This document shows positions 21,779-54,936 of a stretch of 60,097 bases of DNA, one piece after another (the first letter of the stretch is position 1; each line of letters opens with the position of its first letter). The position numbers were made by a program, and so were the translations under genes. The notes under the pieces were generated by a model. The model searched no databases and was not told the DNA's origin. It saw only the letters and a list, made by a program, of their open reading frames with translations. This DNA comes from an uncultured Prochlorococcus sp. (GTDB taxonomy: Bacteria; Cyanobacteriota; Cyanobacteriia; PCC-6307; Cyanobiaceae): contig CACNSV010000005.1 of assembly GCA_902623195.1 (NCBI GenBank), positions 1 to 60,097 on the forward strand. The letters are read 5' to 3'.

Positions 21779-21850
21779 GCCCTTGTAGCTCAGCGGTAGA
21801 GCACACCCTTGGTAAGGGTGAGGTCTCGGGTTCAAGTCCCGACGAGGGCA
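21779..21850 (+). tRNA. tRNA-Thr (GGT)
   Basis: A complete 72-nt tRNA. The acceptor stem GCCCTTG pairs with CGAGGGC, the anticodon stem-loop CACCC-TTGGTAA-GGGTG gives anticodon GGT, and the T arm TCGGG-TTCAAGT-CCCGA is perfect. It is 10 bp after tRNA-Tyr and likely cotranscribed. Its 3' half is the left copy of the 47-bp repeat that delimits the downstream island, so it is the integration target. Confidence 0.97.
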
Positions 21851-21852
21851 TA
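21806..21852 (+). repeat. left attachment-like repeat (attL) in tRNA-Thr
   Basis: These 47 bp run from inside the anticodon stem of tRNA-Thr to two bases past its 3' end. They match 25528-25574 without mismatch, and the flanks diverge at once on both sides. Anticodon-to-3'-end att sites are standard for tyrosine-recombinase elements. Confidence 0.9.
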
Positions 21853-22227: not shown

Positions 22228-22266
22228 ATACAACGCTTACTACTTGCACCGCTATAGTGATTCTGG

Positions 22267-22308
22267 TTGACAGCTGATCTAAATTAGAGGGGTAAAACCC
22301 TCTTTTTT
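22267..22308 (+). promoter_or_regulatory. shared leader, copy 1 (promoter-like box plus hairpin)
   Basis: It begins TTGACAGCTGATC, followed by a -10-like TAAATT and then a GAGGG/CCCTC hairpin with a T6 run ending one base before the ATG of the next gene. The 5' 28 bp are nearly identical to the copy before 27452, with weaker copies at 22569, 26573 (minus) and 38589. It has a terminator-like shape but lies in the leader. Confidence 0.65.
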
Positions 22309-22563
22309 ATGTCACCTAATAAAGGACCAAAAGTCATCAAATACTGTGTAATTACATCTACAACTGCGATAGTCCTCATTTTCATCTCCTTGATACCCGT
22401 TTCAAAAAAGGCATTTTATTGGAATAAATGCTTTAAAAAAACATTCCAATGGATTGATAAAAACGAGATGGAACTAAAAAATTGGGATAAAGCATCAAAA
22501 GAAAGTATTGCAGTAGCAGTTTGCAATGGTGCTGTGTATGAACCTGAACTTAAAACAAAGTAA
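22309..22563 (+). CDS. small membrane-anchored protein, family B
   Basis: An 84-residue protein with an N-terminal transmembrane helix (about residues 14-31) and a short polar, charged C-terminal domain with two Cys. The order helix, W/Y-K-Cys, then a conserved Asn-Ala-like C-terminal Cys resembles the protein at 38633-38896, and both genes follow the same leader motif. It lies inside the tRNA-Thr island. Function unknown. Confidence 0.6.
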   Translation: MSPNKGPKVIKYCVITSTTAIVLIFISLIPVSKKAFYWNKCFKKTFQWIDKNEMELKNWDKASKESIAVAVCNGAVYEPELKTK

Positions 22564-22568
22564 TCCGA

Positions 22569-22610
22569 TTGACAGTCGATCTACAATAAGGGGCAATTAG
22601 CTACTTTTTT
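22569..22610 (+). promoter_or_regulatory. shared leader, copy 2
   Basis: It begins TTGACAGTCGATC, then a -10-like TACAAT, and ends with TTTTTT directly before the ATG at 22611. The hairpin of copies 1 and 4 is weak here. It precedes a DUF3764-like gene, as copy 3 does. Confidence 0.55.
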
Positions 22611-22895
22611 ATGTCCATTGAAACAACTGTTTTAGATTTCAAATTAAGTAATACTTTTGAGGAATATGAGGCGCATATGAATGCTCCCGAACAACAGGCC
22701 ATGTTTAAAGAGATGGGAGTAAAAACTTTTTATATTGGCAAATCATTAGAGGATCCCAAAAGAGCAACAGTTATGTTTCAAGGACCAGTAAATACTTGTT
22801 ACGACATCTTTGTTAATCCTGAAACTAAGCCAATAGTTGAAGCATCCGGTCATATTTATGAAGGGACAGTAATTAACCGCTGGATTTCTGAATAA
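22611..22895 (+). CDS. DUF3764-like protein
   Basis: A 94-residue soluble protein with the pattern of the picocyanobacterial DUF3764 family: a LSNTFEEYEAHMN start, ...YIGKSLEDPKRATVMFQGP, and a C-terminal SGHIYEGTV. A second member is at 26261-26530. The family assignment is from memory of such proteins and its function is unknown. It follows shared leader copy 2 directly. Part of the tRNA-Thr island. Confidence 0.6.
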   Translation: MSIETTVLDFKLSNTFEEYEAHMNAPEQQAMFKEMGVKTFYIGKSLEDPKRATVMFQGPVNTCYDIFVNPETKPIVEASGHIYEGTVINRWISE

Positions 22896-23369: not shown

Positions 23370-23528
23370 TGACTGGGTAAGTGATTCACTAGTTTTTTTA
23401 AAAGATATAACTTATTTATTACATGGCATTGTGTTATTTCTCAAGACAAATCATGAAGTATTTGTCCAGTATTTGACCACTTTTTCTAAAATAAATACAA
23501 TTTAAACTTTAAATAAACATAGTTTGGC

Positions 23529-25010: not shown

Positions 25011-25066
25011 TAGGGGAGACAGGATTCAGACTTGCGACTTAGCGTTCCCAATGCACCAGCTCTAAC
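25011..25066 (-). repeat. decayed tRNA-Pro-like 3' fragment
   Basis: The minus strand reads GTTAGAGCT (D-arm remainder), a mismatched anticodon arm with loop ATTGGGA (TGG at the anticodon), a degenerate T arm and CTCCCCT-A as acceptor strand. It shares order, anticodon and orientation with the fragment at 23323-23369 but has more substitutions. It overlaps the stop of the neighbouring minus-strand gene. Confidence 0.5.
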
Positions 25067-25403
25067 TCTTTACTTTTGCTTCTAAGCCAACTAACTTCAT
25101 AAGAACTTTTGCATTACTTGCAACTGCAGAATATTGTTTTTCCTGCATTGCTCTATGCATAGCAGTTTCTAAAGTACATAATAATTTTGCTGTCATCTCA
25201 GGACGATTTAAGTCCCCTTCCTCGATATCATTTTTTAGTAAAAGGTAAGCATTGGAGGTAATCTGCCTCGCTCTTCTTCTTGATATTCCATATTTCGCGG
25301 CAACAAGGGAAGTAATTGATGAATATGCCTGTCCTTCGGCAACTAATTCGGCAGCATGTGCAACTCTTAATTCAGTTTCTTTTTTAGTTGCTCCTTTATG
25401 CAT
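25062..25403 (-). CDS. small HTH protein resembling phage terminase small subunits
   Basis: A 113-residue basic, helical protein. Residues 29-54 (SSITSLVAAKYGISRRRARQ) form a helix-turn-helix-like segment, followed by a helix region with LETAMHRAMQEKQYSAVASN and KLVGLEAK. This layout, an HTH and a C-terminal helical oligomerisation part ending in a Leu-Gly-Leu motif, resembles terminase small subunits or related DNA-binding proteins of phages and satellites. The call is by pattern only. It is divergent from the right repeat, with an operator-like repeat cluster upstream. Confidence 0.5.
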   Translation of the reverse strand: MHKGATKKETELRVAHAAELVAEGQAYSSITSLVAAKYGISRRRARQITSNAYLLLKNDIEEGDLNRPEMTAKLLCTLETAMHRAMQEKQYSAVASNAKVLMKLVGLEAKVKS

Positions 25404-25428
25404 AAATCAAACTAATTAACCTTATTAT

Positions 25429-25460
25429 GCACTAATTTCGCACTAATTTTCGCACTAATT
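25429..25460. promoter_or_regulatory. three phased GCACTAATT repeats
   Basis: GCACTAATT occurs at 25429, 25440 and 25452, spaced 11 and 12 bp, about one helical turn, with TTCG or TTTCG between. The array lies 26-57 bp upstream of the ATG of the minus-strand HTH gene, where a repressor or activator would bind. Autoregulation by that protein is a plausible inference. Confidence 0.55.
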
Positions 25461-25527: not shown

Positions 25528-25574
25528 CCCTTGGTAAGGGTGAGGTCTCGGGTTCAAGTCCCGACGAGGGCATA
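25528..25574 (+). repeat. right attachment-like repeat (attR), tRNA-Thr 3' fragment
   Basis: An exact 47-bp copy of 21806-21852, holding the anticodon loop TTGGTAA, T arm and 3' acceptor strand of tRNA-Thr without its 5' half. It is not a functional tRNA. It marks the right end of the island. Confidence 0.9.
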
Positions 25575-25600
25575 AAAACCCACCGCCAAGAGCAACCATC

Positions 25601-25622
25601 AAACGCCATTAGGCGTTTTTTT
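25601..25622 (+). terminator. rho-independent terminator, probably of tRNA-Thr
   Basis: A perfect stem AAACGCC/GGCGTTT with loop ATTA, followed by more T residues to 25622. It lies 27 bp beyond the tRNA-Thr 3' fragment. It probably terminated tRNA-Thr before the island split them; the current tRNA has no similar hairpin within 50 bp. Confidence 0.8.
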
Positions 25623-25706
25623 ATTGCCCATACCGCTTCAGCACTTCATTTATGCAGAAATCGTCCGTCAGGAACACTCATGATACTCCAAATCTAAAAT
25701 AATAAA

Positions 25707-25778
25707 ACTTCCCGAAAACTTCCCGTTAATATTTCCAAACTTCCCGAAAACTTCCCGTTAATATTTCCAAACTTCCCG
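25707..25778. repeat. phased CTTCCCG iteron-like array
   Basis: CTTCCCG occurs five times, at 25708, 25719, 25740, 25751 and 25772, with spacings 11, 21, 11 and 21 bp. The larger unit is 32 bp, present 2.25 times. All copies face the same side of the DNA helix. It lies 133 bp beyond the right att repeat. Such arrays often bind recombinase arm domains, initiators or regulators. Confidence 0.7.
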
Positions 25779-25960
25779 AAAAATACAAATATTCTTAAAA
25801 ACTACCTTCAAAACCAGTCATAACGTACCTATATCTCTCAACTCAATTTTCGAAGAGGGCCCTTTCCAAGATCTGCATAGATTAGGGGATCATCATTTAA
25901 CTCAAATTCAGATAAATTTATAAAAGATTGTCCAACATTATGCCTCTATAACCATACCGG

Positions 25961-26131
25961 ATGCACAAAATTTATATTTCAGCGACTATGAATTATGGTA
26001 TTGGTTCCGATAACCTTGAAGAATTAGCTTTCTACTACAATATCAGAAAAGAGATAGAGGACATGAAAAAAGATCCAGTAAAAAAAGGAATACCCCTTAA
26101 ATGGGATATTCTTGAAGAAATAGATAAATGA
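25961..26131 (+). CDS. 56-residue hypothetical protein
   Basis: An ORF starting ATG at 25961 encodes MHKIYISATMNYGIGSDNLE and continues with charged helical residues to EEIDK. It is soluble and acidic. The next small gene begins inside its stop codon (ATGA at 26128-26131), which supports translation of both. No domain recognised. Confidence 0.5.
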   Translation: MHKIYISATMNYGIGSDNLEELAFYYNIRKEIEDMKKDPVKKGIPLKWDILEEIDK

Positions 26132-54642: not shown

Positions 54643-54936
54643 TTATTCCTTAGTTTCCTTTGGCTCTTCCTTAGTTTCTGTTTTTGCTTCTTCCTTAGCT
54701 TCTACTTTTAGCTCTTCCTTTGTTTCTACTTTTGGCTCTTCCTTCGTTTCTGTTTTTGCTTCTTCCTTAGCTTCTACTTTTGGCTCTTCCTTAGTTTCTG
54801 CTTTTGCTTCTTCTTTAGCTTCTACTTTTGGCTCTTCCTTAACTTCTCTTTGTTTTCTCCCAAAATCGTCTTTTCCTACAACAAAGAAAATTAATGCGAA
54901 TAGGAAGAAGGAGGCAAATAATAATATTTCCATCAA
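54643..54936 (-). CDS. membrane-anchored EAKEE-repeat protein
   Basis: A 97-residue protein with one N-terminal transmembrane helix (residues 2-21) and a repetitive tail built from tandem 16-residue units such as EEPKVEAKEEAKAETK, interrupted by half units. The tail is highly charged and probably forms an extended helix. The DNA repeats closely too (about 48 bp per unit), so unit number may vary. It is likely to span the periplasm or bind partners. Function unknown. Confidence 0.65.
   Translation of the reverse strand: MMEILLFASFFLFALIFFVVGKDDFGRKQREVKEEPKVEAKEEAKAETKEEPKVEAKEEAKTETKEEPKVETKEELKVEAKEEAKTETKEEPKETKE

What the first reader, a model, noticed from the sequence alone, without database searches (positions are those of the whole stretch)
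25707..25778. CTTCCCG iterons with alternating 11/21-bp spacing beside attR
Five copies at exactly 11, 21, 11 and 21 bp put all sites on one face of the DNA at one and two helical turns. The array sits 133 bp outside the right att repeat. It could be a recombinase arm-site array, an element replication origin, or a silencer-binding site. Being outside the current island, it may mark a second, older element sharing this junction.
Basis: partly seen in the sequence, partly recalled or inferred. Interest (0 to 1): 0.65.

Follow-up and report, generated by a model that had tools for sequence, protein, structure and literature searches.

The report
Integrase arm sites of a relic element
The repeated CTTCCCG motif is most likely the row of handholds where a DNA-integrating enzyme grips the end of a mobile element that inserts beside a transfer-RNA gene in Prochlorococcus; here the element has lost its genes and only its two ends remain, and the same layout marks related elements across marine picocyanobacteria.

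Summary
In detail: five CTTCCCG sites spaced 11/21/11/21 bp, a perfect 32-bp unit in 2.4 copies (25705-25782). Relaxed 11-bp-spaced TCCCG pairs occur in 11 of 265 genus genomes, all beside tRNA-Thr(GGT) or a copy of its 3' end: about 150 bp after the tRNA, about 80-90 bp before a second tRNA-end core, or both with 0.8-3.9 kb of cargo between. One such end carries a tyrosine integrase whose N-terminus folds like solved arm-type binding domains. Twenty related elements (tRNA-Ser, -Asn, -Thr) share the layout with element-specific motifs: usually three sites on the tRNA side (11-12 then 20-23 bp apart) and two sites about 91-95 bp from the far core; left ends match their own right ends (permutation p about 1e-5). 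The layout recurs in other genera.

The window array matches both distances. I read it as the fused P and P' integrase arm sites of an older, cargo-less element whose far core has decayed to GAAGAGGGC (25852-25860). Integrase binding is untested. It is a new member of a known kind (lambda/mycobacteriophage-type attP).

The parts
21779..21850 (+). tRNA-Thr(GGT), the attachment gene; its 3' end is the att core
   Evidence: ARAGORN and Rfam
25528..25574 (+). 47-bp copy of the tRNA-Thr 3' half (also 21806-21852): right att of the younger island and the near boundary of the older relic
   Evidence: exact direct repeat
25575..25704 (+). left end (tRNA side) of the older element, with a terminator-like hairpin at about 25602-25622 (AACGCC ATTA GGCGTT TTTTT)
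   Evidence: alignable in layout with the left ends of L085-L100, which also have a hairpin plus T run
25705..25782 (+). arm-type site array: 32-bp unit x 2.4
   Evidence: TRF score 156, 100% matches
25708..25714 (+). site 1, +134 from the near att end
25719..25725 (+). site 2 (11 bp after site 1)
25740..25746 (+). site 3 (21 bp after site 2)
25751..25757 (+). site 4 (11 bp after site 3)
25772..25778 (+). site 5; its TCCCG is 78 bp from the far core, as in the right arms of relatives
25779..25851 (+). right end (spacer between right arm and far core)
   Evidence: 25774-25864 aligns to L092 with 82 identities and 9 mismatches; 25774-25823 identical to L094
25852..25860 (+). decayed far att core GAAGAGGGC (GACGAGGGC in tRNA-Thr)
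   Evidence: 78 bp from the last TCCCG; 75-79 in 13 relatives
25429..25460 (+). separate array GCACTAATTTTC x 2.8 of the younger island, probably its right arm, about 95 bp before the tRNA-derived repeat
   Evidence: TRF; sequence; similar array and att in L022 and L034

Best explanation
The array is the integrase arm-type site array of an attP of the lambda / P4-like heterobivalent kind, left by an older mobile element that integrated at the 3' end of tRNA-Thr(GGT) in a Prochlorococcus genome. In intact elements of this family the integrase N-terminal domain is expected to hold direct-repeat sites on the tRNA side (P arm: about 113-150 bp from the att core, usually three sites spaced 11-12 then 20-23 bp) and on the far side (P' arm: two sites 11-12 bp apart, the distal one about 91-95 bp from the other core), while its catalytic part recombines the tRNA 3'-end cores. 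In the window everything between the two arms is gone: the left end runs into one array, which continues directly into the right end and a decayed core. The likely cause is recombination between left and right arm repeats, which deleted the cargo, plus tandem duplication of a 32-bp unit. Shown: coordinates, distances, homology of the right flank, the two-ended grammar in many elements, the integrase and its arm-domain fold in a relative. Inferred: that the integrase (not the AlpA-like factor) binds the sites, and how the cargo was lost.
For: All 20 relaxed pairs in the genus lie at tRNA-Thr or a copy of its 3' end. Cargo sits between a left and a right array in L085, L089, L090, L092; no cargo in L086, L087, L093, L095 and the window. 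Last TCCCG to core is 78 bp in the window, 75-79 in 13 relatives. L094 has an integrase (PHROGs 3.5e-23) and an AlpA-like gene (PF05930 2.3e-5) next to its array. The integrase N-domain matches solved arm-type binding domains 3ju0 (Z 10.3) and 3jtz (Z 9.8); the whole matches lambda Int (Z 15). 17 of 20 left ends match their own right end best, p about 1e-5. Arrays cluster at att distances. Left-arm spacing 11-12 / 20-23 recurs in most left arms. Layout seen in other genera. tRNA-Thr integrases from other genera carry TTCC-type arms.
Against: No binding or recombination data. No integrase in the window itself. The distance windows used for statistics were drawn after seeing the pattern. 13 or so of 31 loci outside the genus gave no array near an att at the threshold used. 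Motif similarity tracks the integrase as a whole, not the N-terminal domain in particular. One element (second one of L144) does not match its own ends, and the first one of L144 was ranked best through an A+T-rich word.
Confidence: 0.85

Rival explanations
1. The sites bind the AlpA-like excision factor (recombination directionality factor), not the integrase; the array is an excision-control and autoregulation site.
For: AlpA-like genes lie beside the integrase in L094 and several others; in L094 the array is about 55 bp upstream of the operon start. Such factors also bind repeated sites in att arms.
Against: Arrays are at both ends at fixed distances, also in cargo-only elements with no such gene next to them; the 2 + 3 direct-repeat plan is that of integrase arm sites in PMC3203893; the integrase has an arm-domain fold that needs such sites.
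Confidence: 0.1
2. Iteron-type replication origin of the element, or an operator/silencer site.
For: Short direct repeats one helical turn apart are typical of both.
Against: Same array at both ends with different neighbouring cargo; position is tied to the att core, not to a gene; no initiator gene was recognised by eye in the cargo ORF lists (no initiator profile was run).
Confidence: 0.02
3. A chance tandem duplication or a promoter element of the small gene at 25961-26131 with no link to mobility.
For: The 32-bp unit is a perfect tandem duplication. The small gene with its upstream region is common in the genus (214 of 266 genomes).
Against: In most relatives the conserved region starts near query 329 (window about 25888), beyond the array. 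The motif and its flanks recur as element ends, with and without that gene next to them.
Confidence: 0.03

Closest known systems
attP of mycobacteriophages CrimD, Pixie, L5 and Giles (PMC3203893)
   Same: Pairs of 11-bp repeats on both sides of a core at the 3' end of a tmRNA or tRNA gene; Pixie has a pair on one side and three sites on the other in direct orientation; CrimD has a terminator-like stem-loop between core and arm; motifs differ between related integrases.
   Different: Phages of another phylum; here elements are small islands, many without an integrase, and the window copy is a cargo-less relic. Their sites were predicted too; integration of an int-attP vector was tested there.
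Phage lambda attP and Int (PMC4880445; PDB 1z1g)
   Same: Arm-type sites in both P and P' arms bound by a small N-terminal domain, core sites cut by the catalytic domain; the model matches lambda Int.
   Different: The N-terminal domain here resembles the P4-like (HPI, HAI7) arm domain; accessory bending sites were not looked for.
Tycheposons of Prochlorococcus (recalled; described second-hand in PMC10872708 and PMC11389934)
   Same: Small elements at tRNA genes of the same genus with tyrosine recombinase and variable cargo or satellite functions.
   Different: Formal membership was not tested; the primary paper is not held, and I do not know whether arm arrays were described there.
Picocyanobacterial integrase family of PMC10187409
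   Same: Divergent tyrosine integrases of Prochlorococcus and Synechococcus beside tRNA genes.
   Different: Reported at tRNA-Phe and tRNA-Cys; the integrases here use tRNA-Ser, -Asn and -Thr. Not compared by sequence.

Membership tests
Lambda/P4-like heterobivalent integrase attP | Core is a duplicated 3' end of the target gene | tested here: met
   tRNA 3'-end copies of 11-20 bp at element ends; GACGAGGGC in relatives, one base off in the window
Lambda/P4-like heterobivalent integrase attP | Repeated 10-12 bp arm sites on both sides of the core at set distances | tested here: met
   Left and right arms in 20 elements; in the window both distances are met on one fused array
Lambda/P4-like heterobivalent integrase attP | Cognate tyrosine integrase with an N-terminal arm-binding domain and catalytic residues | tested here: met
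   Met in relatives: L094 and others. No integrase lies beside the window array
Lambda/P4-like heterobivalent integrase attP | Integrase binds the arm sites and needs them for recombination | not testable with these tools
   needs footprints and recombination assays
Lambda/P4-like heterobivalent integrase attP | Sites for DNA-bending proteins between core and arms | not tested
   not looked for
Tycheposon | Integration at tRNA genes with a deep-branching tyrosine recombinase | tested here: inconclusive
   tRNA sites and a divergent recombinase without a Pfam match are present; no comparison with the published recombinases was possible
Iteron replication origin | Adjacent initiator gene and a single origin array | tested here: inconclusive
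   Arrays with the same motif lie at both ends, which speaks against it; no initiator was recognised by eye in the ORF lists, and no initiator profile was run

The most novel reading that the evidence does not exclude
The arm arrays also serve as cargo-exchange joints: fused cargo-less ends stay at the tRNA as docking scars, elements swap cargo by recombination between identical arm repeats, and integrase-less islands are mobilised in trans by any integrase of matching arm specificity, so that the arm motif defines compatibility groups.
Probability: 0.25. Interest if true: 0.75.

Novelty: new member of a known kind. Interest (0 to 1): 0.58.

Why it matters
Integrase-less genomic islands make up much of picocyanobacterial variability, and how they move is unclear. 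A sequence-readable, element-specific arm code at fixed distances from tRNA cores would let one delimit elements, including cargo-only ones and relics, and predict which integrase can move which island. It gives a concrete test of trans-mobilisation.

Tried and rejected
The strict CTTCCCG pair search in the genus found only the window, which alone would wrongly suggest an orphan repeat. blastn against phage records: no match. The genome contigs pattern scan gave Prochlorococcus hits plus scattered other taxa, not examined and presumed chance. Pfam gave no integrase family for the L094 protein; PHROGs did. Alignment A1 was too diverse for the search for related loci. The Mantel test did not single out the N-terminal domain. 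The younger island shows no left arm matching its right arm, so it is probably composite or truncated. The original tycheposon paper is not in the library; the passages read in papers that mention tycheposons hold no arm-site description.

Full report
Observation. Five CTTCCCG copies lie at 25708, 25719, 25740, 25751 and 25772. They form one perfect 32-bp unit in 2.4 copies, so the alternation is an 11+21 pair duplicated in tandem. The first site starts 134 bp after the tRNA-Thr repeat that ends at 25574.

Relatives at the same locus. The strict pair is found only here among 266 genomes of the genus. The relaxed 11-bp pair TCCCGAAAANNTCCCG gives 20 sites in 11 genomes against 1 for the reversed control. 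Every one lies beside tRNA-Thr(GGT) or a copy of its 3' end with the core GACGAGGGC.

Two ends and cargo. In L085, L089, L090 and L092 a left array about 150 bp after the tRNA and a right array about 80-90 bp before the second core enclose 0.8-3.9 kb of different cargo. In L089 the cargo reads as a cytosine DNA methyltransferase with a companion, possibly nuclease gene (judged from sequence, no profile search). In L086, L087, L093, L095 and the window the left end and right end meet at a single array without cargo. From the last TCCCG to the core is 78 bp in the window and 75-79 bp in 13 relatives. The window's right flank aligns to L092 with 82 identities and 9 mismatches, and 50 bases from 25774 are identical to L094. 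The window's far core reads GAAGAGGGC, one base off. In L021, L032 and L033 the tRNA 3' end abuts the downstream sequence directly, as an empty site would.

Integrase. L094 carries, next to its array, a 435-aa protein, an AlpA-like protein (PF05930, 2.3e-5) and a 150-aa protein of unknown kind. The 435-aa protein matches a PHROGs integrase family at 3.5e-23, and the profile of its relatives matches lambda Int at 2.7e-7 and the arm domain 3jtz at 2.4e-5. Relatives keep R271, K302, R373 and Y407 invariant and H370 nearly so. The AlphaFold model (mean pLDDT 80.6, pTM 0.55) has an N-terminal domain that matches solved arm-type binding domains: 3ju0 Z 10.3, rmsd 2.3 over 84 residues; 3jtz Z 9.8, 2.1 over 77; the whole protein matches lambda Int 1z1g with Z 15.0, though with rmsd 8.7 over the whole chain.

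A general grammar. Twenty-three genomes of the genus hold relatives of this integrase. Oriented with the tRNA at the left, most have a pair of 11-12 bp repeats upstream of the integrase followed after some 64-79 bp by a copy of the tRNA 3' end. Elements with both ends show the same words at both ends. In a set of 20 elements (near-duplicates dropped, four tRNA-Thr cargo elements added), the left end scored best against its own right end in 17; permutation p about 1e-5. One of the 17 (first element of L144) owes its rank to an A+T-rich word. Of 37 TRF arrays, 13 fall in the right-arm windows (0.11 expected) and 8 in the left-arm windows (0.23 expected). These windows were drawn after the pattern was seen, so the probabilities are descriptive. 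Left arms usually have three sites spaced 11-12 then 20-23 bp, for example L136 11,21; L134 12,22; L388 11,22; the window has 11,21,11,21. Some differ: 65-66 bp to the third site in L139, L145 and L146, and 11,11 in L085, L089 and L090.

Outside the genus. Thirty-one integrase loci from other genera of the family were read. Nine (L367, L368, L370, L371, L372, L374, L380, L387, L388) have the right-arm pair at about the expected place before a tRNA-type core. Eight loci of a tRNA-Ser(CGA) class (L375, L377, L378, L379, L384, L385, L386, L395) have an array ending 111-115 bp from the tRNA 3' end, with the same motif again at the far end where it was held (L381, L384, L385). The rest gave no array near an att at the threshold used and were not examined further. 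The other tRNA-Thr integrases (L380, L387, L388) are the closest to L094 outside the N-terminal domain (48-49% identity, next best 35%) and carry TTCC-type arms. Motif similarity follows integrase similarity (Mantel r 0.28 with the N-terminal domain, 0.33 with the rest) without preference for the N-terminal domain.

Interpretation. The simplest reading is a lambda-type attP with P and P' arm sites. Pixie has a 2+3 direct-repeat plan and CrimD a terminator between core and arm (PMC3203893); the window has a terminator-like hairpin at about 25602-25622. The window array combines the left-arm distance (134 bp) and the right-arm distance (78 bp), so it looks like the joint of two ends whose cargo is gone. 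Loss by recombination between the arm repeats, and the 32-bp tandem duplication as a later slip, are inferred. The rival that the AlpA-like factor owns the sites cannot be excluded without binding data.

Relation to known elements. These look like tycheposons (recalled; the primary paper is not held). Another picocyanobacterial integrase family has been reported at tRNA-Phe and tRNA-Cys (PMC10187409). Whether arm sites were described for tycheposons before is unknown to me, so novelty is set at new member of a known kind.

Noticed in passing
window 22262-22313 and 22564-22615: A repeated leader (TTGACAG..., then a hairpin with a T run, GAGGGGTAAAACCCTCTTTTTT in the first copy) ends directly at an ATG; a similar leader stands before cargo genes in L085 and L090. 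It looks like a promoter plus terminator-like hairpin just upstream of island genes.
   Followed up: no
window 25062-25460: The younger island's own 11-12 bp array (GCACTAATTTTC) lies just upstream of a 113-aa gene with a weak sigma-70 region 4 match (E 0.01); no matching array at the island's left end.
   Followed up: partly
window 23457-23479: AGTATTTGACC in two copies inside the younger island, like the array before the small gene in L020; possibly the arm remnant of a third element.
   Followed up: no
window 25888-26131: A 56-aa gene with its upstream region is found in 214 of 266 genus genomes, sometimes in two copies, without a Pfam family.
   Followed up: no
L135, L136, L144: Several elements stacked in tandem at one tRNA, each segment with its own arm motif.
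   Followed up: partly
L375-L397 (several): A tRNA-Ser(CGA) class in other genera with the integrase right beside the tRNA and the array between them, the reverse of the layout in the window's genus.
   Followed up: partly
window 54646-54851: A 24-bp tandem repeat in about 8 copies (period 24/72), probably coding.
   Followed up: no
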